Shown here: positions 35,096-51,496 of the stretch, piece after piece
Position numbering within the stretch: the stretch's first letter is position 1
How the letters are laid out: each line of letters opens with the position of its first letter
DNA from: an uncultured Flavobacteriaceae bacterium
GTDB taxonomy: Bacteria; Bacteroidota; Bacteroidia; Flavobacteriales; Flavobacteriaceae
DNA: 64,000 bases
NCBI GenBank assembly: GCA_947500575.1
Contig: CANMSI010000002.1
Coordinates: forward strand, 310,001-374,000
Direction of reading: 5' to 3'
Made by a program: the position numbers and the translations under genes
Notes under the pieces: model-generated
Told to the model about the DNA's origin: nothing
Seen by the model: the letters and a program-made list of their open reading frames with translations, nothing else
The model's database searches: none

Positions 35096-35886
35096 TATTT
35101 GACGGCTTTTATAACGGCTATAGAATCTGCCCACCATGTATCTTTTACGTCTTGTGGCATTTTTAAAGGAACTACTTGAACCGAGAATGAACTAAAATAA
35201 CGTAATAATAGACGTTGATGTTCTCTACTCAAAGAATCCACCTCGTTTGAAAAATAGGTAAATGCCCCATTGTCTTTTAAGTGTGTCTGTGCATATGGAA
35301 AGAAATGTTCAGCAAATGTGATACTTCCATTTACATAGCGCATGTATTCATCCTCATTTAGCGGATAGGTATGGAAAAAGATCCCATCAAATGTTCCGAG
35401 ATCATCAATAGTATCTTGCCACAACCCATGAACCAAAGAAATTTCTTTCTCTGCATATTTTTCTTTCCAATGGTGGTATTGATCTACCACGGCATCATTA
35501 CATTCAATAATAGTGTGGGATTGAATAGATTGCTCTTGAATTAAATCGGCAGAGATGCCTCTTCCAAACCCAATTTCTAAGATATCGCCACCATTGGAAG
35601 TTACTACCTCAGACATGGCTTTCATCACTGGAATTTGCCAATCTTCCATGATCTCTTGATCTTCTAATACTTTTTGCTCTCTATCATCCAAGGAATTAAT
35701 GGTGGCCCCGGGCACAAAGCTCTTAGTTTGCTCATGTAAAGCATTGATATCTGCAGTAAATTCTTTTAGGGCTCTATTTACTACAGCATTTCTTTGCGCC
35801 GCTCTTGGAGGTGCAATAAAGTCGTTGTCATTAAGTACAACTGTAACCTCAAAAGCTTCCGATCTTTTTATTCTTTTCATGCTCAT
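35095..35886 (-). CDS. GAMT-like SAM-dependent methyltransferase lying inside a split NRPS module
   Basis: 263 residues. SAM-binding motif I GGDILEIGFGRGIS (99-112) is followed by HTIIECND (124-131), GLWQDT, FDGIFFHTYPL and a late GAFTYFSNEVD. This pattern is that of guanidinoacetate / arginine N-methyltransferases and not of the usual NRPS N-methyltransferase domain. The gene is exactly where methyltransferase domains are inserted in interrupted adenylation domains (between A8 and A9), but it is a separate protein with flanking stop and start codons. The likely target is an amino or guanidino nitrogen of the amino acid activated by the split domain. Confidence 0.88.
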   Translation of the reverse strand: MSMKRIKRSEAFEVTVVLNDNDFIAPPRAAQRNAVVNRALKEFTADINALHEQTKSFVPGATINSLDDREQKVLEDQEIMEDWQIPVMKAMSEVVTSNGGDILEIGFGRGISADLIQEQSIQSHTIIECNDAVVDQYHHWKEKYAEKEISLVHGLWQDTIDDLGTFDGIFFHTYPLNEDEYMRYVNGSITFAEHFFPYAQTHLKDNGAFTYFSNEVDSLSREHQRLLLRYFSSFSVQVVPLKMPQDVKDTWWADSIAVIKAVK

Positions 35887-35902: not shown

Positions 35903-38833
35903 TTAAGATAGTTGCTGCAATACATATTTTTTTTCCTCACTATCCAAAGATGCCACGGAGTCTAGTAACTCGTTAATTTCTACTTCGGTTAGATAGCGTT
36001 CTAAAAGAGTCAATAATTCTTCAGGATCAGTACCATTCTCAATATGCTCGGATAGATGAATCGTTGCAGTTTCTGCCATGAGCACAGCTTTATCTACTAA
36101 TGGATGTTCTAAAATGACTTTTTCAATCTCATCCAATTCAATTCTATAACCACGTATTTTTACTTGTTGATCTAACCTGCCAAGAAATTGGATACAACCA
36201 TCGGATCTGTACCGAGCTAAATCTCCTGTTTTATATAATTTTTCACCCTCTGTCTTGCTAAAAGGATCATCCACTAATACTGAATTGCTAAGCTCAGATC
36301 TATTGATATATTCTTTCGTCAATCCTGGTCCTCCAATATAAATCTCTCCTTTAGCACCAAAGGGAACTTTTTCCATATCCGAATTTAAGAGGTATATTTT
36401 AGCATTTGCCACTGGTTTACCGATAGGCACTCCATTAATAATATCTTCCCTCAATATCTGATGCGCAATACACCAAACAGTTGCTTCTGTAGGACCGTAT
36501 TCATTGTATAATTTTACCTCTGGTAATACTTTAAAATGCTCTTTGCAAACATTAGAAGAACATGCTTCCCCTGCAACCATTACAGTTGTTAAACTTCCAA
36601 TGCGTGCACTATCCACATGTTCCAGAATTAATTGATACAGGGAAGGGAGCATTAATGTATGACTCACTTTATTCTTTTGAATAGAAGCTGCAATCTCTTC
36701 AATATCTTGTTCTATTCGCTTTTCGGAAATAACGAGATTACCTCCGGTGCATAGCGTCCAAAAAATCCCTGCTTTGGAACTATCAAATGAAATGGAAGAC
36801 ATTAGTAAAAAGGCTGTTGGATTCTGATCATAAAAATCCAAACGACCCATAGTGGATTGGATGATGTTCCGATGGGTTATTGGCACTCCTTTAGGCTGAC
36901 CCGTACTGCCCGAGGTATAAATAATGTATGCTAATTGATCTTGAGTAACAGTAGGGAGTGATATGTTATCCTCTGTTCCTGTAACATCTAATTCATCAAT
37001 GCAAATAATTGGGACATCAATCTCCTTAAAAAAGTCGTTTAATTTCGTCTCAGTAAGAATAATATCCGCTTTTGCATCTTCTAGTATATAACTCATCCGT
37101 TGCGGCGGATAATCAGGGTCTATAGGCAAATAAGCCTGCCCTGCTTTTAAAATAGCTAGAAGACCAATAATCATCTCCAAAGAACGATCCATACACAATC
37201 CAATGACACCATTCACAGCTTTGGTCTGTGCTAGCAATTTTTTAGCAATTAGTTCTGATTGCTGATCTAACTCTTTATAGCTAATGGATTTATCTAAATA
37301 ACTTACGGCATTTTTATCTGGATACTGTTGGCATATTTCCTCAATGATCTTGTGTATTCCTGCATAGTTTTCAAAAGGGTTTTGGTTCGCGGCATCCGAA
37401 TAGAAAAATAATTGCTTTTCCATAGCTGTTTCCATTGGGATATTGGAAATTATATTTTGCGGATTTTCTACTACCCCTTCTAGGAGTAGCTTAAAGTACT
37501 CTTGAAACCTTTGAATGGTTGCTTCCTTGAATAGATCGGTAGCATATTCAAAAGTGGCAGAGAGCTGTCCGTTATTCTCGGCAATGTACAAGGTAAGATC
37601 AAACTTAGATACTCCAGTATCAAAGGAATCATGTGCTAGTTCTAGACCTTCCCCAAAGTTTGGTGTTGGCGGCACTGCATGGTACAAGAACATCACTTCA
37701 AAAAATGGATTGCTGCTAAGAGACCTTTGCGGTTGAATGTTTTTTACCAATAAATCAAAAGGTACATTTTTATGAGTAAAGGCTTGCATGGTAGTCTCCT
37801 TTACCATTTTCACTAATGTTTCAAAAGACATTGATGGCTCCAGTTCCGTTCTTAGAACAACGGTGTCATTAAAAAAACCTATAATACCTTCAAGTGCTTT
37901 TTGATCCCTGTTGGCAATGGGAGAACCAATGAGAACATCTTTCTGCCCTGTATATCTGAATAACAACAAATAGTAAATCGATAATAGAAAAACATAAGGG
38001 GTAACATCCATCTTCCTAGATAATGCTAAAACCTCTTTAGAAAGACGAGGAGTAAGTTCTTGTACATTAAATGCTCCTTTAAAAGAAGACCGTATGGGAC
38101 GTTTATAGTCTGTAGGAATATCTAGTGGAGCTAACTCTCCAGACAATTTTTTCTTCCAGTATTCAATTCCTTTGGAACTTACTTCAGTATTTTGTTGCCA
38201 ATATGCATAATCTACATATTGAATTTCTGTTTTTAAAAAACCAGCCGGATTTTGATCTATAAGAGCGCGGTAATGAGCGGCTAGTTGATCTCTAAAAATA
38301 CCCATTGACCATTTGTCTGTAACAATATGATGTAGGGTTAATTGCAGTATGTGATGTTCCTTATGCAGTTGAATTAAGGATACTCTGATTAAAGGACCAT
38401 CCGTAAGGTTAAAAGAAAAGTTTGCATCAGCATGCATAATTTTATGCGCTTCTTTTTCTGCTTCAACCTGCTCTAAATGACAATAATTATATTGGAATAT
38501 TGGCAGTACCGCCTTTTCATTAATTTTCTGAAACACCTTGCCATCTTCTATTTGATAAGTAGATCTTAAAATTGCATGATCTGCATATACTTTTTGGAGG
38601 CTTTTTACCAAAAAATCAGTTTTTAAAATACCCTTTAAAACATATGATTCTGCATAATTATAGAACGTGTTTTGAGGATATAATTGCTGTAAAAACCATA
38701 AGCGCTGCTGCCCATTAGACAATGGGAGACGAATATTATCTGGTGCTTTTGAAATGGTATTAGAAGGAGTACTGGTTTTATTCCTGTTTTTCCATTTGCT
38801 TAGCAACGAATCTTTTGTGTTTTCTTTTTTCAA
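35903..38833 (-). CDS. NRPS: condensation domain plus N-terminal part of a split adenylation domain
   Basis: 976 residues. The condensation domain (35-460) has HHIVTDK (His168, His169, Asp173; the usual Gly is Lys). The adenylation domain starts near 490 with IIYTSGSTGQPKG, YNEYGPTEATVW, KTGDLARY and A8 KIRGYRIELDEIE (892-904), then ends after an 80-residue helical tail without A9 or A10. Those motifs are on the protein from 33125-35095. I read the specificity code as about DSAMMAEVW, which I cannot assign to an amino acid. The tail helix (EEKKYVLQQLS) and the head of the partner protein (LSEEERGLVLRKL) look alike and may form a docking pair. Confidence 0.92.
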   Translation of the reverse strand: MKKENTKDSLLSKWKNRNKTSTPSNTISKAPDNIRLPLSNGQQRLWFLQQLYPQNTFYNYAESYVLKGILKTDFLVKSLQKVYADHAILRSTYQIEDGKVFQKINEKAVLPIFQYNYCHLEQVEAEKEAHKIMHADANFSFNLTDGPLIRVSLIQLHKEHHILQLTLHHIVTDKWSMGIFRDQLAAHYRALIDQNPAGFLKTEIQYVDYAYWQQNTEVSSKGIEYWKKKLSGELAPLDIPTDYKRPIRSSFKGAFNVQELTPRLSKEVLALSRKMDVTPYVFLLSIYYLLLFRYTGQKDVLIGSPIANRDQKALEGIIGFFNDTVVLRTELEPSMSFETLVKMVKETTMQAFTHKNVPFDLLVKNIQPQRSLSSNPFFEVMFLYHAVPPTPNFGEGLELAHDSFDTGVSKFDLTLYIAENNGQLSATFEYATDLFKEATIQRFQEYFKLLLEGVVENPQNIISNIPMETAMEKQLFFYSDAANQNPFENYAGIHKIIEEICQQYPDKNAVSYLDKSISYKELDQQSELIAKKLLAQTKAVNGVIGLCMDRSLEMIIGLLAILKAGQAYLPIDPDYPPQRMSYILEDAKADIILTETKLNDFFKEIDVPIICIDELDVTGTEDNISLPTVTQDQLAYIIYTSGSTGQPKGVPITHRNIIQSTMGRLDFYDQNPTAFLLMSSISFDSSKAGIFWTLCTGGNLVISEKRIEQDIEEIAASIQKNKVSHTLMLPSLYQLILEHVDSARIGSLTTVMVAGEACSSNVCKEHFKVLPEVKLYNEYGPTEATVWCIAHQILREDIINGVPIGKPVANAKIYLLNSDMEKVPFGAKGEIYIGGPGLTKEYINRSELSNSVLVDDPFSKTEGEKLYKTGDLARYRSDGCIQFLGRLDQQVKIRGYRIELDEIEKVILEHPLVDKAVLMAETATIHLSEHIENGTDPEELLTLLERYLTEVEINELLDSVASLDSEEKKYVLQQLS

Positions 38834-38857: not shown

Positions 38858-40096
38858 TTACTCCCATAAACCGAGGTATACTGCCAAATCCCGGATTCGC
38901 ATTTTTACATAATCATAGACTCCCAGTTCAATATCAAATATACGTTCAACACACCAATACAGGGATACTATGATAAGTATGATAGAACCGTAGAATAGGA
39001 TTTTTGGATAAAGCTTGGACTTTCGTAAGAAGTACAATATTGGAAAAATCAATGCAATGATAACTACTTGTCCAATTTCTACGCCTACATTAAAGCCTAA
39101 TAGGGAGAGGGTTAAAAATTCGTTTGTCAATCCTAAATCACTCAGAACACTGGCAAAGCCAAAGCCATGGAAAAGTCCAAATACAAAGGCAATCAACCAA
39201 TCTTTTCCCTTAAAAATAGGGCGTATATTATGAAATGCTGCTAATCCAATAGAAAATGCAATTATAGATTCTACAATTCTTGAAGGTAGCGATACCAACT
39301 CCAAGGAGGCCAAACTTAAGGTAATGGTATGTGCTATGGTAAAAAAGGTAACCACCTTTAAAATATACAAGAATGCTGGTTTAAACCTTGCTACAGGTTG
39401 CCATATACTAGCACCTTTTGATGTGCTTGTCACAGAATCTTCTTGTCTTCTTCTTACTACAGAGGGCAGAATAAGTGCTAAAAGAAACAATATATGATCT
39501 AAACCAATCCATATATGCCAAATACCTTGTTTTATCATGGCCATAAAACCATTCCAAACAGAAACATCTGTGACAGATAGGGTTTCGTCTGTATCATTTG
39601 GGGTAAAAGTTAAAGAAATATTTGCTTCATTATTAATAATACCCGCTTTCCAATTGTATTCAATAATTAAAAAACCACGATGGGTATAATCTTTTTCGAA
39701 AACGGCGCTATAATGAACATCTAGGTCATCTGGTAAGACTTCTGTGTTTTGTAAATCGAACTTCACCAAGAGATAATTGCCTAAACTCACATTTAGTAGA
39801 TCAACATCCTTCAAAACGATTGGATGCTCTCCGTACACCGATTTAAAGGAAGTATTCTTCATTAAATACGCTTGTATATCCTTTATGTAAGGCTGAAGCT
39901 CTTCTAAAGAAGTGTTCTTATCCAGTTGGAGGTTAAATACCTTATTAATTTCATTAATATTCAATTCCCATCGCCCTTCAATACCGTCGTTTTCATAGAT
40001 TCTAAGGTATACATAGCTCTGATTTGGAATGTGAGCTTCTCCAAAAAAGGGAATAAAAAATAGCAATACTAAAGCGTATTTCAATAGTTGATTCAT
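38858..40096 (-). CDS. HupE/UreJ-family membrane protein with extracytoplasmic N-terminal domain
   Basis: 412 residues. A signal peptide and a soluble domain of about 180 residues come before a helical membrane domain of the HupE/UreJ_2 family. Its motifs include IWHIWIGLDHILFLLAL, LFGLFHGFGFASVL and GFNVGVEIGQ, whose His and Asp residues suggest metal binding. HupE/UreJ proteins are linked to nickel, cobalt or other metal transport. It is the first gene of the minus-strand synthetase transcript, 24 bp before the C-A gene. This links the peptide product to metal handling, though the metal is unknown. Confidence 0.87.
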   Translation of the reverse strand: MNQLLKYALVLLFFIPFFGEAHIPNQSYVYLRIYENDGIEGRWELNINEINKVFNLQLDKNTSLEELQPYIKDIQAYLMKNTSFKSVYGEHPIVLKDVDLLNVSLGNYLLVKFDLQNTEVLPDDLDVHYSAVFEKDYTHRGFLIIEYNWKAGIINNEANISLTFTPNDTDETLSVTDVSVWNGFMAMIKQGIWHIWIGLDHILFLLALILPSVVRRRQEDSVTSTSKGASIWQPVARFKPAFLYILKVVTFFTIAHTITLSLASLELVSLPSRIVESIIAFSIGLAAFHNIRPIFKGKDWLIAFVFGLFHGFGFASVLSDLGLTNEFLTLSLLGFNVGVEIGQVVIIALIFPILYFLRKSKLYPKILFYGSIILIIVSLYWCVERIFDIELGVYDYVKMRIRDLAVYLGLWE

Positions 40097-40356: not shown

Positions 40357-41427
40357 ATGCTTAAAAAAGAAAAGAAAACAATCGTTCTCTCAGCAGAGGA
40401 TGTGAATACGATTGTGGAAAAATTTGGGTTCAATAAGTTAATGGATATACTTATTGATAGATTAACCCATACCATCCATAATTATGAGCCTGAGACCCTC
40501 AAGATTCCTATTCGATCAGGATTTAACTATACCGCCGAAAACCCTGGATTGATAGAATGGATGCCTGTTCATCAAAAAGGAGAAGAGGTTGTAATTAAAG
40601 TAGTAGGGTACCATCCTCAGAATCCTGAAAAATTTAATCTCCCAACCATCTTATCTTCTATTTCCGCTTATGATACCAGCACTGGACATTTAATGGGGAT
40701 AGCAGATGGTGTGTTATTAACGGCGCTTAGAACCGGAGCTGCTTCAGCAATTGCAAGTAAATTAATGGCTAAAGTAGATAGTAGTATCTTAGGTCTCATT
40801 GGCTGTGGCGCACAATCAATTACACAATTACATGCCCTCTCTCGCATATTTGAGTTAAAAAAAGTTCTAATTTACGACATAGACGTAGATACCATGCATT
40901 CTTTTGAGGAGCGTATTTCTATGTTAAACTTGGATATAGCAGTTAAAAGAAGTTCAATCAATGAAATTATTGGACAATCAGACATCGTCTGTACAGAAAC
41001 TTCTATTGAAGTGGGGACAGGACCGCTCTTTCAAAATTTACCATTTAAAAAACACTTACATATCAATGCCGTAGGTTCGGATTTTCCTGGGAAAACTGAA
41101 CTTCCTATCGACTTTTTAAAACAGAGTTTTGTTTGTCCTGATTTTCTAGCACAAGCAAAAATTGAAGGTGAATGTCAACAATTGCGTGATAATGAGATAG
41201 GGATAGACTTAGTAGGTTTAACCAAGAATCATATGAATTACAAACATGTGAAGGAACAAACTTCAGTTTTCGATTCCACGGGTTGGGCGTTGGAAGATAT
41301 GGTAGTAATGGATTTATTTTTAGACTTGGCCAAAACCTTTAATATTGGTCTTGAAGTGGCTATTGAGAATATTTCTCAAGATGTTAAAAATCCCTACCAT
41401 TTTTTGCTAAAAGAAGTAACGGTATAG
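40357..41427 (+). CDS. Ornithine cyclodeaminase / mu-crystallin family enzyme
   Basis: 356 residues. The NAD-binding Rossmann motif is GLIGCGAQSITQLHAL, following ALRTGAASAIASK; INAVGSDFPGKTELP is the conserved active-site segment with Asp. Family members turn ornithine into proline, lysine into pipecolate, or make Dap precursors (SbnB). The next three genes are the set that oxidises prolyl-carrier to pyrrolyl-carrier, so proline supply from ornithine is the simplest reading. It leads the plus-strand half of the cluster, divergent from the HupE-like gene across a 260-bp intergenic region. Confidence 0.88.
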   Translation: MLKKEKKTIVLSAEDVNTIVEKFGFNKLMDILIDRLTHTIHNYEPETLKIPIRSGFNYTAENPGLIEWMPVHQKGEEVVIKVVGYHPQNPEKFNLPTILSSISAYDTSTGHLMGIADGVLLTALRTGAASAIASKLMAKVDSSILGLIGCGAQSITQLHALSRIFELKKVLIYDIDVDTMHSFEERISMLNLDIAVKRSSINEIIGQSDIVCTETSIEVGTGPLFQNLPFKKHLHINAVGSDFPGKTELPIDFLKQSFVCPDFLAQAKIEGECQQLRDNEIGIDLVGLTKNHMNYKHVKEQTSVFDSTGWALEDMVVMDLFLDLAKTFNIGLEVAIENISQDVKNPYHFLLKEVTV

Positions 41428-41542: not shown

Positions 41543-42694
41543 ATGAATTTTTCATTAACCGATGAGCAACAAGCATACAAAGAAAAGGTAATTGAATTTG
41601 CCCAAAATGAACTTAATACCTCCTATACCGAAAGGGATAGAGACAGTGTCTTTTCTAGAGAGGATTGGGAAAAGTGTGCGAAATTTGGTTTACAAGGTCT
41701 CGCTACGCCAACTGCGTATGGAGGATCCGCAGACGAAGTAAATATCCTTACTGCTACGGTTGCCATGGAAGGTTTTGGTTACGGTTGTAAAGACAACGGT
41801 TTGGCATTTGGACTGAATGCCCAAATGTGGACGGTACAATTTCCAATTGCTCAATTTGGAACCGAAAGTCAGAAGAAAAAGTTCTTACCAAAATTAGCTG
41901 CGGGAACCTGGATTGGTTGCCATGCACTTACAGAACCCAATGCTGGTTCTGACGTGTATAGTATGGAAACTACTGCCACAAAAGTAGACGGTGGATACAT
42001 CCTAAATGGGAGTAAACGCTATATTACTTTTGCGCCCATATCGGACGTTGTCTTGGTATTCGTCAAAACCAATCCCAAACTAGGGAAATGGGGAATGAGT
42101 GCTTTTCTAGTAGAAAAAGGAATGGAAGGCTTTACCGCAGGTCTTAATAGACCTAAAATGGGTTTAAGAACAGTACCCTTTGGAGATCTCTTTTTTGAAG
42201 ATTGTTTTGTACCCGATGAAAACCTTCTAGGAAAAGAAGGTGCTGGTTGGGCTATTACAAATAGTTCCTTGGAACATGATAGATGTACTATTCTGGCCGG
42301 ACAACTGGGTGCTATGGAATACCAACTTGAGGAGACTATTAAATTTGTAAAAGATAGAAAGCAATTTGGGCAAGCTATAAGCCAGTTTCAATCCGTTTCT
42401 AATCGCATAGCTAATATGAAACTCCGAATAGAGACTTCAAGACTATTACTGTATAAAGTAGCTTGGTTAAAAAGTCAAGGAGCTTCTACTATGATGGAAT
42501 CTGCTTTACTGAAATTACACTTAAGTGAAAGTTTTGTTGACTCTAGCTTAGATGCGATACGCAACCATGGCGGACATGGGTATCTATCTGAAAACGAAAT
42601 TGAACGAAATTTAAGAGATGCTGTGGGTGGTGTTATTTATGCAGGCACTTCAGATATTCAAAGAAATATTATTTCCAAATTATTAGGACTATAA
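41543..42694 (+). CDS. Acyl-CoA dehydrogenase-like flavoenzyme, likely prolyl-S-PCP oxidase
   Basis: 383 residues. ACAD motifs: HALTEPNAGSDVYSMET, FITFAPIS-type middle domain, QLGAMEYQLEETIKFVKDRKQF, NHGGHGYLSE and the C-terminal YAGTSDIQRNIISKLL. It is an FAD enzyme. In pyoluteorin- and prodiginine-type pathways, a member of this family (PltE, RedW) oxidises proline bound to a carrier to pyrrole-2-carboxyl. The neighbours (adenylation enzyme 13 bp downstream, then a free carrier) match that set. Ordinary fatty-acid oxidation is the alternative, but no other such gene is nearby. Confidence 0.88.
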   Translation: MNFSLTDEQQAYKEKVIEFAQNELNTSYTERDRDSVFSREDWEKCAKFGLQGLATPTAYGGSADEVNILTATVAMEGFGYGCKDNGLAFGLNAQMWTVQFPIAQFGTESQKKKFLPKLAAGTWIGCHALTEPNAGSDVYSMETTATKVDGGYILNGSKRYITFAPISDVVLVFVKTNPKLGKWGMSAFLVEKGMEGFTAGLNRPKMGLRTVPFGDLFFEDCFVPDENLLGKEGAGWAITNSSLEHDRCTILAGQLGAMEYQLEETIKFVKDRKQFGQAISQFQSVSNRIANMKLRIETSRLLLYKVAWLKSQGASTMMESALLKLHLSESFVDSSLDAIRNHGGHGYLSENEIERNLRDAVGGVIYAGTSDIQRNIISKLLGL

Positions 42695-42707: not shown

Positions 42708-44261
42708 ATGATTTCTACTTTACCACATATCGTTGAGAATGCCGCGAGTATGTTTCCTGAAAGGGAGGCTTTTCGTTGTGGTAAGGCATCTATCAGTTTT
42801 ACCGAACTGGATGTAAAAACCAATCAACTTTCAGCCTACCTTAGGAAGAAAGGATTGAAAAAAGGAGATAGAGTTGGTATCTATATGGATCGCTGTTTAG
42901 AAACGACCCTCGCCGTTTATGGCATAATGAAGGCAGGTGGTGTCTATGTTCCTTTAGATTCCTTGGCACCGCATCCTCGTACGCTCTTTCTTCTAGAAGA
43001 TTGTGGAATTGAATTTTTAGTGACAACTCCCAAACAATTTAAAAGAGTTTCTGCATTACTCGCAGCGAATAAAACGCTTGCAAATATCGTTGGAATTTCT
43101 AAAGAAATTGGAGTTGACGCTATAGGCTGGGAAGCAATATCAGAAATATCATTGGAATCCTATAGTCCTGTTGAAATTTTAGAGACAGATTTAGCATATA
43201 TCATGTATACTTCTGGTTCTACTGGGGCACCAAAAGGAATAATGCATACGCATCTTAGTGGGCTAACGTACGCTAAGAGTGCAGCTGAAGTTTATGAAGT
43301 TACAAAAGAAGATAGAATAGCCGGACATGCGCCCTTGCATTTTGATATTTCTACCTTTAATTACTTTACATCACCTCTAGTAGGAGCAGCCAATGTTATT
43401 ATACCAGATGCCTATACCAAGTTACCAGCAAGTTTATCTACACTTATAGAACAAGAAAAAATAAGTATTTGGTACTCCGTACCCTTGGCTTTAGTGCAAT
43501 TACTAACACAAGGAGTCTTAGAGAAACGAGATTTATCATGTCTACGCTGGGTACTTTTTGGTGGGGAAAATTTTGCCCCTAAATACTTGAGAGAACTTAT
43601 GAATGAATGGCCTCAGGCAACATTTTGCAATGTCTATGGCCCTGCGGAAATTAACCAATGTACTTATTATCACGTACCAAGTTTGCCAGAAAATGACATG
43701 CAAATTCCTTTGGGGAAAATTTGGAAAAGTGCAATCCATAAGATCTTAGATGAGCAAGATTTGGAGGTGCCAAAAGGAGAAGCTGGTGAACTTGTGGTTG
43801 CCACACCAACCATGATGCAAGGTTATTGGAATAACGCAGCACTGACCATGAAATCAATTTTTATAGCTAAGAATGCTAAAGAAATTGATCAGAAGTATTA
43901 TAGAACAGGAGATATCGTAAGAGAGAACGAAAATGGAGAATTAATTTTTCTAGGAAGAAATGATCGACAGGTAAAATTAAGAGGGTATAGAGTAGAATTG
44001 GATGAAATTGAAGCGGTTCTCACAAGACATGAAGGAGTAGAGGAAGCGGCAGCTGTTATTAACAAAGTGGATGAAAATACAACAGGGATTTATGTGGCGG
44101 TTATACTTCATGCCAATCAAGTATTCGAAAGTGATGATCTAATTGCTTTTTGCAAATCTCATTTACCCTCGTATGCAGTGCCGCATCAAATAGAAATACG
44201 ATCCAATTTCCCAAGAACCAGCTCAGGCAAAATAAAACGCTCAGCAATTACAACAATATAA
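42708..44261 (+). CDS. Free-standing amino-acid adenylation enzyme, likely L-prolyl-AMP ligase
   Basis: 517 residues, complete from A1 to A10: MYTSGSTGAPKG, HFDISTFNYFTSPL, WYSVPLALVQLL, NVYGPAEINQC, RTGDIV, KLRGYRVELDEIE and the final SGKIKR lysine. The sequence resembles PltF/RedM-type ligases that load proline on a separate carrier. I read the specificity code as about DIFSLGVQC. It is placed between the ACAD-like oxidase and a 77-residue carrier, as expected for a pyrrole starter unit. Confidence 0.88.
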   Translation: MISTLPHIVENAASMFPEREAFRCGKASISFTELDVKTNQLSAYLRKKGLKKGDRVGIYMDRCLETTLAVYGIMKAGGVYVPLDSLAPHPRTLFLLEDCGIEFLVTTPKQFKRVSALLAANKTLANIVGISKEIGVDAIGWEAISEISLESYSPVEILETDLAYIMYTSGSTGAPKGIMHTHLSGLTYAKSAAEVYEVTKEDRIAGHAPLHFDISTFNYFTSPLVGAANVIIPDAYTKLPASLSTLIEQEKISIWYSVPLALVQLLTQGVLEKRDLSCLRWVLFGGENFAPKYLRELMNEWPQATFCNVYGPAEINQCTYYHVPSLPENDMQIPLGKIWKSAIHKILDEQDLEVPKGEAGELVVATPTMMQGYWNNAALTMKSIFIAKNAKEIDQKYYRTGDIVRENENGELIFLGRNDRQVKLRGYRVELDEIEAVLTRHEGVEEAAAVINKVDENTTGIYVAVILHANQVFESDDLIAFCKSHLPSYAVPHQIEIRSNFPRTSSGKIKRSAITTI

Positions 44262-44270
44262 TTTAGTACT

Positions 44271-44504
44271 ATGGAAGAAAAAATTGTAGCATTCGTGAAT
44301 GATCAGATTTCAAGCAATCAAACGGATGAAAAAATAGAGGCTCAGGACGACCTGCTTGGCGGAGGTATCCTTGATTCTCTTGGGATGATGCGCTTAATTA
44401 GTTTTATTGAAACTGAATTTGGAATTAAGGTGCCACCAGAGGATATGACCATTGAAAATTTCATAAATATTGAGACCATTACTGGATATATTTCTAGTAA
44501 ATAA
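44271..44504 (+). CDS. Free-standing peptidyl carrier protein
   Basis: 77 residues: a complete acyl-carrier fold with the phosphopantetheine serine Ser36 in GGILDSLGMMRL. It would carry the starter residue between the ligase, the oxidase and the condensation domain of the following synthetase, which begins 20 bp downstream. Confidence 0.92.
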   Translation: MEEKIVAFVNDQISSNQTDEKIEAQDDLLGGGILDSLGMMRLISFIETEFGIKVPPEDMTIENFINIETITGYISSK

Positions 44505-44524: not shown

Positions 44525-47500
44525 ATGACTCAAAGTAGGAAAAATGCTCTTCCGCTGACGCAAAGTCAGTCGTTAATGTGGACCGGACAGAAATTGAATC
44601 CGGAATCTCCCTTGTACAATGTGATACATACTTTTGACTTCACAGGAGCATTTCATGTATCTAATTTTCAAAGGGCTTTTCAAGAATTGATTGATAGGGT
44701 AGATGTATTTAGAACGGTATTTTTTGAGGAAGAGGATGTCCCTTATCAAAGTGTTTTGGATGTGTATGCGTATGAAATGGATTTTTTGGACTTTTCCTCA
44801 AAATCTAAGGACTTCTTAAACCATTTTATTAAAGAACGTTCCCAGGAGGTTTTGGACCTTCACAAACCTTTATTCGATGCTATTTTAATTAAAATGAGCG
44901 AACAAAGACATGTTTGGTATTTAAATATTCACCATGTCATTACAGATGCTACTTCGTCTACTATTATATATGATGTTATTGCAGATTTGTACAAGCAAAT
45001 TACCCAAGGCGAAGCTTTAAATGTAGAAAATGCACCAGCATTTAGTTCATATGTCCAATTTGAAAAAACACAAAACACAGCAAATGTATCGGATGCCAAA
45101 TCTTATTGGGAAGAAAAAATTGGGGCACTCTCTACGGTGCCTATTTTTTATGGAAAACAACGAAAACAATATACATCAGTTTCTAAAAGAATATCCTTTA
45201 AACTGGGAGTTAAGCTTTCAAAACAATTAAAAGAACTTGCCAAGGACCCATCTATTAGAGGTTTTACGGAGCATTTGACCCTATTTAATATTTTTTCTTC
45301 CTTACTCTTTGTATTCATCTATAGAATAAGTGGCCAGCAAACCATTGCTATTGGAGCTCCTTCTCATAATAGACCAACAAAGCGATTCAAGGAAACAGCA
45401 GGACTCTTTATTGAGATCTTTCCACTACTGGCTTCACTTTCAGAGGATGATACTTTTAATAGTGTACTTCAACGTGCAAAAATAGAGAGCAACGGTTTTT
45501 TAAAAAATGCACAAGCTGGATTGGCAGATGCAGCTACAAGCAGAAGTTTTAACGTGATTCTGAATTATATCAATGCCCGTTTTTCCGACTTGGAGGGTCT
45601 TGAGATGAAATCCAAATGGATTCATCCTGGACATTGTGATCCTGCACATCAATTACGTTGTCATATTGATGATTTTGACGCTTCGGGTGATATTGAAATA
45701 CATTTCGACTTGAATCAAGATGTGTTCGATGATGAATTGACGAAGAAAGTTCCCAATCATTTTTTAGCATTGGTGAGTGCATTTGTAGCCGATATCAACC
45801 AGAATATACATCAGCCTACTTTAATTGGTCTAGAAGAGAAAACAGAATTTCTATCTCAGTTCCAAAATAATGTACCAACATTTATTCCAATTATTAGGAA
45901 GTTCAAGGATACTGCCCAACTAAAGAAAGAGGCTACAGCTTTGGTCTTTCAGGGAAAGGAATTAAGCTATGAGCAACTTGATCAGAAATCCAATCAACTT
46001 GCTCATTATTTGAGAAAAAAAGGTATTGCAAAAGGGGATAGGGTAGCGCTGTATTTTCAACGCACACCTGAGTATATTATAAGTGTTCTTGCAGTCCTTA
46101 AAATAGGAGGAACTTTTATACCAATTCCGTCTGACCAAACCATAAAACGTCTTTCTTTTATAGTAAATGACTCAAACAGCGCAGTATTAATAACAAACAT
46201 GGATATTTCCAATAAGGATGTAGACGTACCTATTATTCCTTTATCGGATCTTATTGCAGTGATTTCTAAAGAAAAAGTAGAAGAACTACCTATTTCAGTA
46301 AATACAATGGACCCTGCATATATGATTTATACTTCTGGATCTACGGGAACACCAAAAGGAGTATTAATACCGCATGCAGCCATTGCAAATTATTTAAATT
46401 GGGCCGAGAATGCTTATGCGCATCAAGATCCATATATATTTCCGTTATGTACTTCCATAGGCTTTGATCTTACAATAACAGCCACTTTTTTACCCTTGCT
46501 AACAGGAGGCCAATTAGTAGTGTACAAGGAAAGTGCTCAGGGCCCAGATATAGCTATTATGGAAGTACTAGAAGAGAATGTAGTTAATAGCATCAAATTA
46601 ACTCCTTCTCATCTACATCTTCTCGCTGGAAAGGATGTTTCTCATTCAAACATCAAGACCATGATTGTAGGGGGTGAAGATTTCAAGACATCCCTCGCGA
46701 ATAAAATTCAAACTATTTTTGGAGCCGATCTTCGCATCTTTAATGAATACGGCCCCACAGAGGCAACCGTTGGATGTATTGTTAGTAAGTTCGATGCTCG
46801 TAGTCATTTGAATGCCTCCGTGCCTATAGGCAAACCAATTGCTCATATGCACGCCTATGTATTAGATTCCCATAAAAATTTAGTCCCAAAAGGAGTGGCA
46901 GGGGTACTTTATCTTGGCGGTATTGGTTTGGCGAGCGGTTATGCCAATGCTTCTGAAAGTACTTCTAAAAAATTCCTGGCAGACCCTTTTATAGAAGGAG
47001 CTAGAATGTATGAGACAGGAGACTTGGTTCGAATTAACAAGCCAGGTGAATTTGAATTTTTAGGAAGAGTAGATGAACAAGTAAAACTCAGAGGATATCG
47101 AATAGAGCTGGAGGATATAGAAGCAAATTTAATATCCCATGCTACAGTAGAAAACTGTTCCGTAGTTGTTTTGGAAAAGGAAAAGGTAATTCCTGAAAAC
47201 GAGGTCATTAATTGTATGGAATGTGGCTTACCCTCGAATTATCCAGAGACAGATTTTAATGAGCAAGGGGTTTGTCACATATGCACTGCCTTCAGAGGAT
47301 ATAAAGAAAAAGCACAACAATACTTTAAAACCAAAAAGGATCTAGTTGAGATTCTTAGCAAGAAACGAACTGAAAATTCATCTTATGATTGCTTATCCTT
47401 ACTAAGCGGCGGAAAAGATAGTACCTATGTATTAGCACAATTAATAGGAATGGGGCTTAAAGTTTTGGCGTTTACATTAGATAACGGTTATATCTCGGAT

Positions 47501-48658
47501 CAAGCGAAGGCAAATGTAGATCGAATTGTCTCTAAACTGCGGGTTGATCATATATATGGTACCACGGAGTACATGAATAAAATATTTGTTGATAGTCTGC
47601 ACAGACATCAAAATGTATGTAACGGATGTTTTAAAACCATCTATACTTTAAGTACGCAGATTGCATTGGAAAAACAAATTCCATTTGTAGTAACTGGTCT
47701 GTCTAGAGGTCAGTTTTTTGAGACTCGTTTGACCGAGGAATTGTTTTGGGATGAGAAGGTAGATGCCGCGCAGATAGATAGAACCATTCTAGAAGCAAGG
47801 AAATTATATCACCAGGAAGAAGATGCCGTTAAATCCCTTTTGGATGTGTCTATGTTTGAAAAGGAAGACACTTTCGAAAAGGTTCAATTTGTAGATTTTT
47901 ATAGGTACAGTGATGTAAGTCTTGAAGAAATGCTGAGATACTTGGAAGAGAAAGTAGGCTGGGTACGGCCTACGGATACAGGTAGGTCTACGAACTGTTT
48001 AATCAATCAATTAGGTATTTACGTTCATAAAAAACAGAAAGGATATAGCAACTATTCTTTTCCTTATAGCTGGGATGTGCGTATGGGACATAAGACAAGA
48101 ACGGAGACCTTGGATGAGATCAATGAAGTAATTGATGAAGGTGAGGTAAAAAGAATCATGAGTGAGATAGGCTATAGCGAACCAGCGGAGGAAGCATTGC
48201 ATTCAGAATTATTGGTGGGTTATTATACAGGAAGTCAAAAAGTTAGCTCTAAAGAGTTGAGTGCACACTTAAAAAAGGAATTGCCAGAATACATGATCCC
48301 GCAGCTTTTTAAGCATCTGGAAGAATTGCCTTTGACGTCCAATGGTAAAATTGATAAATCTGTACTTCGTAAACTAAATGCTGCACAATTAGAAATGGAT
48401 ACTCCATATATTGCTCCTAGAGGAGAAATAGAGGAGTTGCTCGCGGCAATTTGGTCAGAGGTATTAAAAATAAAACAAGTAGGTGTACACGATAATTTTA
48501 TTTCTTTAGGAGGACACTCACTTGCTGCAATTCAAACCACAGCAAGGATTAATGAAGAATTAGAAATAGAATTGCCGTTGAATAAAGTATTTGAATTTCC
48601 AACGGTTGAACAATATTCAGCATATATAGAAAACACCCTAATTGAACTTTTACAATAA
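44525..48658 (+). CDS. NRPS C-A-PCP whose adenylation domain is interrupted by a PP-loop (AANH/amidotransferase-like) domain
   Basis: 1377 residues. Condensation domain 1-440 (His136, His137, Asp141 in HHVITDA). Adenylation motifs: YTSGSTGTPKG (602-612), FNEYGPTEATVG (739-750), A8 KLRGYRIELEDIE (854-866). Between A8 and A9 lies a 300-residue insert (about 893-1205): CMEC/CHIC pairs (897, 900, 917, 920), PP-loop SGGKDS (961-966), CNGC (1032, 1035) and STNC (1158), close to N-acetyl-sugar amidotransferases. A9 LPEYMIP (1253-1259) and A10 NGKIDK (Lys1275) follow, then a carrier (Ser1332). The specificity code reads DLTKIGEVGK, one conservative change from the Asn code DLTKLGEVGK. The insert probably makes an amidine, thioamide or related group on the carrier-bound chain; which one is inference. 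Confidence 0.93.
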   Translation: MTQSRKNALPLTQSQSLMWTGQKLNPESPLYNVIHTFDFTGAFHVSNFQRAFQELIDRVDVFRTVFFEEEDVPYQSVLDVYAYEMDFLDFSSKSKDFLNHFIKERSQEVLDLHKPLFDAILIKMSEQRHVWYLNIHHVITDATSSTIIYDVIADLYKQITQGEALNVENAPAFSSYVQFEKTQNTANVSDAKSYWEEKIGALSTVPIFYGKQRKQYTSVSKRISFKLGVKLSKQLKELAKDPSIRGFTEHLTLFNIFSSLLFVFIYRISGQQTIAIGAPSHNRPTKRFKETAGLFIEIFPLLASLSEDDTFNSVLQRAKIESNGFLKNAQAGLADAATSRSFNVILNYINARFSDLEGLEMKSKWIHPGHCDPAHQLRCHIDDFDASGDIEIHFDLNQDVFDDELTKKVPNHFLALVSAFVADINQNIHQPTLIGLEEKTEFLSQFQNNVPTFIPIIRKFKDTAQLKKEATALVFQGKELSYEQLDQKSNQLAHYLRKKGIAKGDRVALYFQRTPEYIISVLAVLKIGGTFIPIPSDQTIKRLSFIVNDSNSAVLITNMDISNKDVDVPIIPLSDLIAVISKEKVEELPISVNTMDPAYMIYTSGSTGTPKGVLIPHAAIANYLNWAENAYAHQDPYIFPLCTSIGFDLTITATFLPLLTGGQLVVYKESAQGPDIAIMEVLEENVVNSIKLTPSHLHLLAGKDVSHSNIKTMIVGGEDFKTSLANKIQTIFGADLRIFNEYGPTEATVGCIVSKFDARSHLNASVPIGKPIAHMHAYVLDSHKNLVPKGVAGVLYLGGIGLASGYANASESTSKKFLADPFIEGARMYETGDLVRINKPGEFEFLGRVDEQVKLRGYRIELEDIEANLISHATVENCSVVVLEKEKVIPENEVINCMECGLPSNYPETDFNEQGVCHICTAFRGYKEKAQQYFKTKKDLVEILSKKRTENSSYDCLSLLSGGKDSTYVLAQLIGMGLKVLAFTLDNGYISDQAKANVDRIVSKLRVDHIYGTTEYMNKIFVDSLHRHQNVCNGCFKTIYTLSTQIALEKQIPFVVTGLSRGQFFETRLTEELFWDEKVDAAQIDRTILEARKLYHQEEDAVKSLLDVSMFEKEDTFEKVQFVDFYRYSDVSLEEMLRYLEEKVGWVRPTDTGRSTNCLINQLGIYVHKKQKGYSNYSFPYSWDVRMGHKTRTETLDEINEVIDEGEVKRIMSEIGYSEPAEEALHSELLVGYYTGSQKVSSKELSAHLKKELPEYMIPQLFKHLEELPLTSNGKIDKSVLRKLNAAQLEMDTPYIAPRGEIEELLAAIWSEVLKIKQVGVHDNFISLGGHSLAAIQTTARINEELEIELPLNKVFEFPTVEQYSAYIENTLIELLQ

Positions 48659-48676: not shown

Positions 48677-49135
48677 ATGAAAGGTAGAAAAAACATAAGG
48701 TCTTTGTTCTTAAGAAGAATAGCAGTACTAATTAGTATTTGCTATCTCTTGGGACCTTTGCATCAGCCAATGAATACATTTCTACATTTTGTGTCACACC
48801 AATTGGAGGCACCAGCACATATTCTGTCTCATGAAAATGATCTTGCAAATCATGGGGTCAATGACGACGAGGCACATGGTATGCTGGTCAATCAGGAAAC
48901 TCATGATCACCAAATAATTGATTTATTAGAATCGTTTTTAAAAACCTCCAATTCGAAACAACCTATAGAAGATTCCTTCATAAGTAAAGTGCAAATTGAT
49001 AAGCATAAGGTTGAGTTCTATGAATTAGTAATTCATCCCATAGTATACACTAACAAAACAATAGTTGATTCTAGTTCATATCTGCTTCTAAGTGGATATC
49101 AACGGAACCTTGATCGTCCTCCAGCTTCTCTATAA
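48677..49135 (+). CDS. His-rich small membrane or exported protein
   Basis: 152 residues. A basic head and one hydrophobic segment (FLRRIAVLISICYLLG) lead into a stretch rich in His, Asp and Glu (about 36-80: HFVSHQ, HILSHEND, HGVNDDEAHG, ETHDHQ) and a C-terminal polar region. There is no known catalytic motif. His-rich proteins of this size are often encoded before TonB-dependent metal receptors, as here. A role in binding or sensing a metal such as copper or zinc is inferred from composition and place. Confidence 0.7.
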   Translation: MKGRKNIRSLFLRRIAVLISICYLLGPLHQPMNTFLHFVSHQLEAPAHILSHENDLANHGVNDDEAHGMLVNQETHDHQIIDLLESFLKTSNSKQPIEDSFISKVQIDKHKVEFYELVIHPIVYTNKTIVDSSSYLLLSGYQRNLDRPPASL

Positions 49136-49261: not shown

Positions 49262-51496
49262 ATGAAAAAGTATATAATAGTAGGCATTTTCATCGCTTTT
49301 ATGGGAACCCTCAGCGCACATGAGCTTAAGGGAACAATTACTACAGAAGATGGTTTGCCAATAGAAGGGGCAGGAGTTTATAATAAGACCACTGGGGGGT
49401 ATACCTACTCCAATGTTTCGGGTTATTTTGAATTGGATGACATCTCAGAAGGAAATCTCATTAATTTTTATAGTTTAGGTTACGAAAAACAGGAAATTAC
49501 CATCGCTGTTAATCAATTGGATGCTACCATTGCTGTAGTATTAATAGAGGCGGCGGTATCACTAGATCAGGTAGTATTGGTCTCCAAAGTAAATGCGTTG
49601 AGTCATTTTGTGAATGTAGATGTTAAAGCGAATCCTGTAAAATCTGCCCAAGAAATCCTTAGAAAAGTACCCGGTTTAATCATTGGACAACATGCTGGTG
49701 GAGGAAAGGCAGAGCAAATATTTTTAAGAGGGTTTGATGTAGATCATGGAACAGACATTGCTATTAATGTAGATGGTTTACCCGTAAATATGGTATCACA
49801 TGCCCATGGGCAGGGATATGCAGATTTGCACTTTGTAATTCCAGAAACCATTGATAACATTGACTTTGGCAAAGGACCTTATTATGCCAATAAGGGGAAT
49901 TTTAATACTGCTGGATATATAGATTTAAATACTAAGAAAACCTTAGACGAAAATTTAATCTCTATTGAGGCTGGGCAATTCAATACACTCAGAGCAGTAG
50001 GCTTACTAAAGCTTTCTGAAGGTGAATACAGCAATGCCTATTTTGCCTCTGAATATGTACTCACAGATGGTGTTTTTGAATCACCTCAAAATTTCAATCG
50101 TCTTAATCTTATGGGACGATATAATTATAATAATCTGGAAGATGAGGAATTAACTATTTCATTATCTCATTTCCAGAGCAAGTGGAATGCTTCTGGTCAA
50201 ATCCCAGTAAGAGCAGTAGAACAAGGTCTTATAGGAAGGTTTGGTGCTATAGACGATACCGAAGGTGGTATTACAAGTAGGAGCAACCTCTGGGTAAACC
50301 ACTCCAAACAAATAGATGAGCACCAGCGTATTAAAACCAAAGCTTTTCTCTCCAAGTACGACTTTGAGTTGTATTCCAACTTTACCTTCTTTTTAGAAGA
50401 TCCTGTGAATGGTGATCAAATAAGACAGAAAGAAGATCGCACCATTATTGGAGCAGAAACCGTGTATGATCGATCGTATCATCTAGAAAACCATGATGCA
50501 CAGTTTAAATATGAAGCAGGAATTGGATTTCGCTATGACGATAACAATGATGTTGAATTATCGCGAACACGAAATCGAAGAGAAACTCTGGAACGCTTGG
50601 CTTTTGGTGATATCGATGAATTAAATGGGTATGCCTTTCTAGGAGGTACTTATAAAAACAAAAAGTGGACTTTAAATCCGAGCTTAAGATTGGATTATCT
50701 CAAATTTGATTATACCGATTTTTTAAGCGAACAATTTGATAATCAAAGCGAGAGTGATGTAATTTTGAGTCCAAAGTTCAACGCACTCTTTGCCGCTTCG
50801 CCTAATGTGCAACTTTTTGCAAAAACAGGAATTGGTTTTCATTCCAATGATACTAGAGTGGTTACCGCCGGTACTGGAGAAAAAACCCTGCCTGCGGCTT
50901 TTGGATCTGATATTGGTGTTATCCTAAAGCCCATAGAAAAGATGGTGATCAATGCTGCCCTTTGGAATCTGTATTTACAGCAAGAATTTGTGTATGTTGG
51001 TGATGCTGGTGTGGTTGAACCCAGCGGGAAAACAGCTCGATATGGAGTAGATTTTGGTATTCGATATCAATTTACAGATTGGTTATATGCCAATGCAGAC
51101 CTTAACTATACCCATGCGAGAAGTACTGAGGAAGCAGATGGCGAAGATTTTATTCCCTTAGCACCCGATTTTACATCTTCTGGGGGTATTTCTATTCAGA
51201 ATTTGGGAAAAGTATCTGGCGGACTAAGTTATCGATATGTAGATGATAGACCTGCCAATGAAGACAACTCCATTATTGCAGAAGGATATCTTGTAACCGA
51301 TTTTAACCTGAATTATAATTTCGCAAAAGGATGGTCCTTTGGGATCATTGTAGAAAATTTATTTGATGTTGAATGGAATGAAACACAGTTTGCCACCAAT
51401 ACGAGATTAATGAATGAACCAACTGGAGTAGAGGAAATTACGTTTACACCAGGGACGCCATTTTATCTTAGAGCCAAATTATCGGTAAACTTTTAG
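49262..51496 (+). CDS. TonB-dependent outer-membrane receptor, probable metallophore or metal receptor
   Basis: 744 residues. Signal peptide (IIVGIFIAFMGTLSAHELKG), a carboxypeptidase-regulatory-like domain (TTEDGLPIEGAGVY, YFELDDISEG), a plug with QEILRKVPGLIIG, FLRGFDVDHGTDI, VDGLPVN and SHAHGQGYADLHF, then a 22-strand-type barrel ending ...RAKLSVNF. It is a classical receptor (FhuA/CirA size), not a SusC. The His-containing HAHGQGY segment of this receptor subfamily and the His-rich gene before it suggest metal or metal-complex import. It closes the plus-strand part of the peptide cluster. Confidence 0.9.
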   Translation: MKKYIIVGIFIAFMGTLSAHELKGTITTEDGLPIEGAGVYNKTTGGYTYSNVSGYFELDDISEGNLINFYSLGYEKQEITIAVNQLDATIAVVLIEAAVSLDQVVLVSKVNALSHFVNVDVKANPVKSAQEILRKVPGLIIGQHAGGGKAEQIFLRGFDVDHGTDIAINVDGLPVNMVSHAHGQGYADLHFVIPETIDNIDFGKGPYYANKGNFNTAGYIDLNTKKTLDENLISIEAGQFNTLRAVGLLKLSEGEYSNAYFASEYVLTDGVFESPQNFNRLNLMGRYNYNNLEDEELTISLSHFQSKWNASGQIPVRAVEQGLIGRFGAIDDTEGGITSRSNLWVNHSKQIDEHQRIKTKAFLSKYDFELYSNFTFFLEDPVNGDQIRQKEDRTIIGAETVYDRSYHLENHDAQFKYEAGIGFRYDDNNDVELSRTRNRRETLERLAFGDIDELNGYAFLGGTYKNKKWTLNPSLRLDYLKFDYTDFLSEQFDNQSESDVILSPKFNALFAASPNVQLFAKTGIGFHSNDTRVVTAGTGEKTLPAAFGSDIGVILKPIEKMVINAALWNLYLQQEFVYVGDAGVVEPSGKTARYGVDFGIRYQFTDWLYANADLNYTHARSTEEADGEDFIPLAPDFTSSGGISIQNLGKVSGGLSYRYVDDRPANEDNSIIAEGYLVTDFNLNYNFAKGWSFGIIVENLFDVEWNETQFATNTRLMNEPTGVEEITFTPGTPFYLRAKLSVNF

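What the first reader, a model, noticed from the sequence alone, without database searches (positions are those of the whole stretch)
47201..48139. PP-loop ATP pyrophosphatase domain inserted in an NRPS adenylation domain between A8 and A9
The insert has the PP-loop SGGKDS, paired CxxC motifs (897/900, 917/920), CNGC (1032/1035) and a further Cys at 1158. It strongly resembles stand-alone N-acetyl-sugar amidotransferases and, more broadly, adenine-nucleotide alpha-hydrolases. Established interruptions of adenylation domains are methyltransferases, monooxygenases and ketoreductases; I know of no described PP-loop insert, though I could not search. Relatives in closthioamide and 6-thioguanine biosynthesis are implicated in C=S formation, and sugar enzymes form amidines. 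CxxC plus one distal Cys is also the ligand pattern of Fe-S thiolases such as TtcA. So this protein may carry out on-line thioamide or amidine formation. All A10 and carrier residues are intact.
Basis: partly seen in the sequence, partly recalled or inferred. Interest (0 to 1): 0.93.

Follow-up and report, generated by a model that had tools for sequence, protein, structure and literature searches.

The report
Asparagine-modifying domain nested in peptide synthetase
A second, ATP-using enzyme sits inside the asparagine-loading part of a bacterial peptide synthetase; it matches in every feature I could test a kind already characterised in two antibiotic pathways, where it turns bound asparagine into a nitrile, but here it sits in a widespread, uncharacterised and probably metal-scavenging gene cluster.

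Summary
In detail: residues ~889-1226 (window 47189-48202) of a 1377-aa C-A-T synthetase form a PP-loop domain inserted between A8 and A9. It is no artefact: 80 loci from several phyla carry the same insert, the seven named cysteines are conserved (one exception in 81), and the A-domain code is always Asn-type.

The claim that no PP-loop insert is described is wrong. Gross et al. 2021 (PMC7966384) characterised the AMDH domain: a 38-kDa, SGGKD-bearing domain inserted in the Asn-activating modules CysH (cystobactamid) and AlbIV (albicidin). CysH with AMDH dehydrates carrier-bound Asn to beta-cyanoalanine in vitro; [quoted passage not shown] Best reading: an AMDH-type amide dehydratase, not a thioamide or amidine synthase. 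CysH and AlbIV sequences were not held, so homology was not aligned directly.

Added here: the invariant CxxC+C triad, the [4Fe-4S] motif of LarE, TtuA and CtaC, could explain why purified CysH is brown; the insertion looks single-origin; its nearest stand-alone relatives sit beside carrier-protein genes; and the gene belongs to a cross-phylum cluster (pyrrole-type starter, Asn module, His-like module, HupE, TonB receptor) resembling a metallophore pathway.

The parts
44525..48658 (+). C-A(PP-loop insert)-T synthetase, 1377 aa
44543..45847 (+). Condensation domain (res 7-441), HHVITD intact
45902..47188 (+). A-domain core to A8 (res 460-888); code DLTKIGEVGK, Asn-type
   Evidence: assignment of the code to Asn from general knowledge
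47189..48202 (+). Inserted PP-loop (AANH/AMDH-type) domain, res 889-1226
47213..47284 (+). Tetra-Cys motif C897xxC900...C917xxC920 (zinc site in LpNASAT)
   Evidence: zinc role from PMC10607449
47405..47422 (+). PP-loop SGGKDS, res 961-966
47618..47629 (+). CNGC, res 1032-1035; aligns with the CxxC of [4Fe-4S] LarE 8cnz
47996..47998 (+). C1158, third Cys of the triad (GRSTNC)
48203..48352 (+). A9-A10 (LPEYMIP, NGK), res 1227-1276
48437..48628 (+). Carrier (T) domain, GGHSL
40357..41427 (+). Ornithine cyclodeaminase/mu-crystallin family protein (proline supply, inferred)
41543..42694 (+). PigA/RedW-like prolyl-carrier dehydrogenase (pyrrole-2-carboxyl starter)
   Evidence: NF053553 E 2e-122, 409 bits against cut-off 500
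42708..44261 (+). Stand-alone adenylating enzyme of the starter (proline inferred)
44271..44504 (+). Stand-alone carrier protein, 77 aa, GGILDSLG
48677..49135 (+). His-rich small protein conserved after the synthetase
49262..51496 (+). TonB-dependent receptor
38858..40096 (-). HupE/UreJ family membrane protein, divergent
35903..38833 (-). C-A(core to A8) of second module, code DSALMAEVW (His-like)
35095..35886 (-). Methyltransferase-like protein between the two halves of the split A domain
33125..35137 (-). A9-A10 part, T and epimerization-type C domain
30707..33121 (-). C-T-TE protein
29970..30710 (-). 4'-phosphopantetheinyl transferase

Best explanation
[quoted passage not shown] The A domain activates L-Asn and loads it on the T domain; the PP-loop domain binds a second ATP, adenylates the oxygen of the side-chain carboxamide, and loss of AMP gives the nitrile, i.e. 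carrier-bound beta-cyanoalanine (isoasparagine would need a beta-hydroxylase of the CysJ type, which is not seen in the window cluster). A [4Fe-4S] cluster held by C1032, C1035 and C1158 probably assists, for example by binding the leaving oxygen or the nitrogen. The condensation domain joins the modified Asn to a carrier-bound starter acid (pyrrole-2-carboxyl here), a His-like module follows, and the product is probably a metallophore taken up by the linked TonB receptor. Shown here: architecture, Asn-type code, conserved PP-loop and cysteines, fold, gene context. Shown by others for CysH: Asn loading and loss of 18 Da dependent on the domain. Inferred: that this protein does the same, the adenylation step, the Fe-S cluster, the product and its use.
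For: Same host and site: PP-loop insert between A8 and A9 of an Asn-type A domain; [quoted passage not shown] AlbIV's extension is 342 aa with SGGKD against about 338 aa here. CysH loses 18 Da with Asn, CysH without AMDH does not. Asn-type code in all 79 of 81 sequences that cover it, although the A core falls to 32% identity, which points to Asn itself as substrate. No HisH-like protein, no NadE-like protein, no class-I glutaminase motif and no cysteine-desulfurase motif in the 80 loci: the chemistry needs no outside NH3 or sulfur donor gene. CysH is dark brown and its metal unidentified; an invariant CxxC+C triad offers an explanation. The fused domains form one clade, 100/100, within which A-insert-T proteins of CysH/AlbIV layout also fall (L260 = L145). 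Fold model pLDDT 88, pTM 0.86; the matches include the nitrile synthetase ArtA, Z 13.5.
Against: The CysH and AlbIV sequences are not held, so identity was not measured. The best PDB profile match is the [4Fe-4S] sulfur insertase LarE (E 1.6e-9). ArtA ties with LarE and many other PP-loop enzymes. A nitrile is not an obvious metal ligand. No biochemistry exists for this lineage.
Confidence: 0.72

Rival explanations
1. On-line thioamide synthase: the PP-loop adenylates the amide and sulfide bound to a [4Fe-4S] cluster replaces AMP, as in CtaC of closthioamide.
For: Triad CxxC...C as in CtaC (D77, C154, C157, C284): D-to-C 67 here and 77 there, C-to-C 123 here and 127 there. CtaC also acts on carrier-bound substrate. 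The A3 profile matches LarE 8cnz through PP-loop, CxxC and GxxxxxxFExR, whereas HisH-linked sugar amidotransferases match LpNASAT over full length (1e-48) and LarE not at all. A thioamide would suit a metallophore.
Against: The characterised domain of this layout and specificity dehydrates Asn. The triad also occurs in HisH/HisF-linked sugar amidotransferases. No sulfur-mobilising gene was seen in the loci, by a motif search only; CtaC's cluster lacks one too.
Confidence: 0.12
2. Amidine synthase: ammonia attacks the adenylated amide, as in WbpG-type N-acetyl sugar amidotransferases.
For: Best overall fold match is LpNASAT 8wex, Z 20.8 over 306 residues; TIGR03573 is the top specific family; profile-profile match to the HisH-linked group 99.9%. 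Stand-alone carrier-associated relatives sit beside a NAD-synthase-like gene.
Against: HisH-linked enzymes are a separate clade; no HisH-like ORF in the window or in 80 loci; score below the TIGR03573 cut-off.
Confidence: 0.06
3. Another dehydration: the adenylated amide is closed onto a neighbouring atom (for example a pyrimidinone from acyl-Asn), or the domain works mainly as an aminomutase giving isoasparagine.
For: Adenylation is shared by all these outcomes; CysH gives isoAsn when CysJ hydroxylates Asn; a PhyH-type dioxygenase lies in the operon of L076.
Against: No hydroxylase among the annotated genes 29970-51496 of the window.
Confidence: 0.07

Closest known systems
AMDH domain of CysH (cystobactamid) and AlbIV (albicidin); PMC7966384, PMC8949500
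   Same: PP-loop SGGKD domain of about 340 aa inserted in an Asn-activating A domain, followed by T
   Different: CysH/AlbIV are stand-alone A-AMDH-T modules that load another synthetase in trans; here it is a cis C-A(insert)-T module in a cluster with HupE and TonB receptor. Sequence identity not measured
N-acetyl sugar amidotransferases (TIGR03573: WbuX, WbpG, LpNASAT 8wex)
   Same: Tetra-Cys N-terminus, PP-loop, overall fold (Z 20.8); the HisH/HisF-linked group shares the triad
   Different: Stand-alone, act on sugars with HisH/HisF; separate clade; insert scores under the family cut-off
CtaC, closthioamide thioamide synthetase; PMC6772006
   Same: AANH enzyme on carrier-bound amides, triad of cysteines with similar spacing
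   Different: Stand-alone, installs sulfur in backbone amides; sequence not held, so no alignment
[4Fe-4S]-dependent LarE (8cnz, 8cp4) and TtuA/NcsA
   Same: PP-loop and triad; LarE is the best PDB profile match from the PP-loop to residue 192 of the profile
   Different: Sulfur transfer to a nucleotide or tRNA, no carrier protein
Interrupted A domains with methyltransferase (TioS 5wmm, KtzH)
   Same: Insertion site A8/A9; 5wmm ranks second for the A-insert-T model
   Different: Inserted enzyme is a SAM methyltransferase
'Cluster 5, subcluster 1' of the QueC family survey, PMC13329287
   Same: Probably these very proteins: 900-2603 aa, mainly Flavobacteria, next to WbpG
   Different: That paper's main text does not recognise them as peptide synthetases

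Membership tests
AMDH domain (CysH/AlbIV) | Inserted within an adenylation domain | tested here: met
AMDH domain (CysH/AlbIV) | Host A domain specific for L-Asn | tested here: met
   code DL[TS]KIGE[VI]G in 79 of the 79 sequences that cover it; reading of the code as Asn is from general knowledge
AMDH domain (CysH/AlbIV) | SGGKD motif, about 38 kDa / 342 aa | tested here: met
   SGGKDS 81/81; about 338 aa; reference values
AMDH domain (CysH/AlbIV) | Sequence homology to CysH/AlbIV (69% identical to each other) | not testable with these tools
   neither sequence is in the collections reachable here
AMDH domain (CysH/AlbIV) | Dehydration of T-bound Asn to beta-cyanoalanine | not testable with these tools
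   needs intact-protein MS
AMDH domain (CysH/AlbIV) | Metal cofactor (brown protein) | not testable with these tools
   only ligand candidates seen: CxxC+C invariant
N-acetyl sugar amidotransferase TIGR03573 | Score above the curated cut-off 203.2 | tested here: not met
   121-125 bits
N-acetyl sugar amidotransferase TIGR03573 | Tetra-Cys site and overall fold | tested here: met
N-acetyl sugar amidotransferase TIGR03573 | Genomic link to HisH/HisF or another ammonia source | tested here: not met
   no HisH-like ORF in 80 loci or in the window
CtaC-type thioamide synthetase | [4Fe-4S] triad CxxC + C after the PP-loop | tested here: met
   but also met by sugar amidotransferases
CtaC-type thioamide synthetase | Sequence homology to CtaC, sulfur insertion activity | not testable with these tools
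   CtaC sequence not held
Interrupted A domain | Functional domain between A8 and A9 with A10 and carrier intact | tested here: met
Prodigiosin-type pyrrole-2-carboxyl starter unit | Prolyl-carrier dehydrogenase + adenylating enzyme + carrier protein | tested here: met
   the PigA model is matched below its cut-off (409 of 500 bits)
Metallophore cluster | Linked TonB receptor and metal transporter | tested here: met
   HupE in 59 and TonB receptor in 62 of 80 loci
Metallophore cluster | Metal-dependent regulation or metal binding of the product | tested here: inconclusive
   no shared palindrome found in 45 divergent HupE promoters

The most novel reading that the evidence does not exclude
The domain is an on-line thioamide synthase built into an A domain: it converts T-bound Asn into thioasparagine with a [4Fe-4S]-bound sulfide, giving a new class of pyrrole-thioamide-His metallophore spread over several phyla.
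Probability: 0.12. Interest if true: 0.85.

Novelty: new member of a known kind. Interest (0 to 1): 0.42.

Why it matters
The chemistry of the AMDH domain was left open in 2021: no structure, unknown metal, no homologue linked to a product. This work gives a candidate for the metal (CxxC+C as in [4Fe-4S] LarE/TtuA/CtaC), a confident fold model, a family of stand-alone relatives beside carrier proteins, and a concrete, culturable set of hosts (for example Maribacter, Zobellia, Arenibacter, Algibacter) in which the domain sits in a conserved cluster that looks like a metallophore pathway. If the product is found it would be the first compound tied to this branch and would tell whether the domain makes nitriles, isoasparagine or thioamides.

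Tried and rejected
1) Triad as proof of sulfur chemistry: dropped when HisH/HisF-linked sugar amidotransferases (L115, L123, L143) showed CWHC + C in the same columns. 2) Amidine formation from resemblance to WbuX: no ammonia-supplying partner, separate clade. 4) Getting CysH/AlbIV by searching the phylum of L086: further fused copies, none identifiable as CysH/AlbIV. 5) viral contigs: only distant sugar-amidotransferase-like hits, no fused copy. 6) Regulatory palindrome between HupE and the operon: nothing shared. 7) Foldseek with the whole A-insert-T model was dominated by A domains, so the insert was modelled alone. 9) The survey of interrupted A domains by Lundy et al. 2020 (PMC8341866) is not held, so I cannot say whether it lists this insert. 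10) Early in the work I favoured thioamide formation; the cystobactamid paper changed that.
Full report
Observation. The 1377-aa ORF at 44525-48658(+) reads Condensation (7-441), AMP-binding (460-806), a QueC/WbuX-like PP-loop domain, AMP-binding C-terminal part (1228-1275) and carrier domain (1305-1368). Removing residues 889-1226 leaves an A domain that aligns without a break to the uninterrupted A protein encoded just upstream. The insertion point is therefore between A8 and A9, the classic site of interrupted A domains, and the insert is about 338 aa.

How real and how widespread. In five of 25 genomes of the same family (the window genome included) the fused protein is present. A scan of 84,980 species genomes gave 138 relatives, of which the best 80 were kept; all 80 are synthetases with the insert, in Flavobacteriaceae, Saprospiria, Chitinophagales, Cytophagales, Balneolota, Acidobacteriota, Acidimicrobiia and Anaerolineae. 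Further copies are on plasmids of Roseovarius and Pseudohalocynthiibacter and in another unnamed phylum (8 genomes of 396). In an even sample of the window's phylum only 2 of 395 genomes have it, with a clear gap between fused copies (570 bits or more) and ordinary sugar amidotransferases (101 bits or less). The insert is the most conserved part of the protein, SGGKDS and the triad are invariant in 81 sequences, and the ten-letter A-domain code is DL[TS]KIGE[VI]GK wherever covered, which I read as Asn from the usual code tables.

What the insert is. The insert alone folds with high confidence (pLDDT 88, pTM 0.86). Over its whole length it is closest to the N-acetyl sugar amidotransferase LpNASAT (8wex, Z 20.8); LarE, the nitrile synthetase ArtA, NcsA and other PP-loop enzymes follow at Z 12-13.5 and are tied. 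By sequence profile the strongest PDB match is the [4Fe-4S] LarE of Methanococcus maripaludis (8cnz, E 1.6e-9), with the CNGC of the insert on the cluster-binding CxxC of LarE; LpNASAT matches only in the tetra-Cys/PP-loop part (5e-8). As a control, a profile of HisH-linked sugar amidotransferases matches LpNASAT over its full length (1e-48) and does not list LarE.

Correcting my own first reading. The triad resembles that of the thioamide synthetase CtaC (D77, C154, C157, C284), and most stand-alone WbuX proteins lack it, which first suggested sulfur insertion. But sugar amidotransferases encoded beside HisH or HisH-HisF have CWHC + C in the same columns. The triad therefore does not prove sulfur chemistry.

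The literature that decides the ranking. A review (PMC8949500) and Gross et al. 2021 (PMC7966384) describe the AMDH domain: an SGGKD-bearing extension of 342 aa in AlbIV and a 38-kDa domain inserted in CysH, both Asn-activating. Purified CysH loaded with Asn loses 18 Da (beta-cyanoalanine), CysH without the domain does not; with prior beta-hydroxylation by CysJ the domain acts as an aminomutase giving isoasparagine. [quoted passage not shown] CysH was dark brown, the metal not identified. The window protein has every one of these features that I could test. Neither CysH nor AlbIV sequence could be fetched, so the last step, a direct alignment, is missing. A survey of the QueC family (PMC13329287) notes 'massive multi-domain proteins' of 900-2603 aa mainly in Flavobacteria next to WbpG, presumably this group, without calling them synthetases.

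Mechanism proposed. A domain loads Asn on T (inferred from the code). The PP-loop domain adenylates the side-chain amide oxygen (inferred from the superfamily); loss of AMP gives the nitrile (shown for CysH as loss of 18 Da, inferred here). No glutaminase, NadE-like or cysteine-desulfurase-like gene was found in the 80 loci (motif searches for two of these), in line with a reaction that needs no second nucleophile. The triad probably binds an Fe-S cluster (inferred), which would explain the colour of CysH.

Evolution. In a tree of 44 domains the fused inserts plus one Streptomyces protein form one clade (100/100); sister to them (98/92) are stand-alone proteins L147, L160, L161, L240 and L241 with the same triad and STNC motif; where neighbours could be read, they lie beside a carrier protein (L171-L173), an AMP ligase (L172, L173) and a NAD-synthase-like gene (L171, L173). 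So the parent enzyme probably already worked on carrier-bound substrates and was inserted into an Asn A domain once. A-insert-T proteins without a C domain, the CysH/AlbIV layout, occur inside the fused clade (L260 = L145). The grouping of Flavisolibacter with Acidobacteria suggests horizontal transfer.

Context. Upstream lie an ornithine-cyclodeaminase-family gene, a PigA-like prolyl-carrier dehydrogenase, a stand-alone adenylating enzyme and a carrier protein: the set that makes pyrrole-2-carboxyl starters. Downstream are a His-rich small protein and a TonB receptor; divergent are HupE and a second synthetase with a His-like code. Across 80 loci a carrier protein is found in 73, TonB receptor in 62, HupE in 59, PigA-like in 33; other loci have adenylating enzymes with other codes, so the starter varies while Asn does not. 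The window genome holds only two HupE genes. HupE and a TonB receptor suggest a metallophore; no metal could be named.

Verdict. A correct and well-spotted observation; the architecture is not new to science, but this branch, its likely cofactor and its gene cluster are undescribed as far as I could search.

Noticed in passing
window 35903-38833(-), 35095-35886(-), 33125-35137(-): The A domain of the second synthetase is split between two genes exactly at A8/A9, with a methyltransferase gene between the halves; the ~970-aa half recurs in L012, L023, L027, L030, L038, L042, L043, L051 and L073, while L016, L019, L026 and L028 have it in one ORF.
   Followed up: partly
L171, L172, L173: Stand-alone triad-bearing relatives of the insert beside a carrier protein, with an AMP ligase (L172, L173) and a NAD-synthase-like gene (L171, L173); possible uncharacterised thiotemplated pathway.
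   Followed up: partly
L115, L123, L143: Sugar amidotransferases next to HisH or HisH-HisF carry a CWHC + C triad that LpNASAT lacks; possible Fe-S amidine synthases.
   Followed up: partly
L108 12062-16882: Streptomyces plasmid: A-T protein, then the insert-type domain fused to a partial condensation domain, with asnB and an amino acid racemase; variant outside an A domain.
   Followed up: partly
L109 7746-8894: Stand-alone triad-bearing AANH protein near acyl carrier protein and ketosynthase genes on a Streptomyces plasmid.
   Followed up: no
L073, L067: Insert of Flavisolibacter groups with Pyrinomonadaceae (Acidobacteriota), 99/89: likely horizontal transfer of the cluster.
   Followed up: no
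L174-L231: Many IMG/VR viral contigs carry distant sugar-amidotransferase-like PP-loop genes.
   Followed up: no
window 699-5312(-): One ORF combines alpha-2-macroglobulin domains (MG2, A2M, TED) with a TonB plug domain.
   Followed up: no
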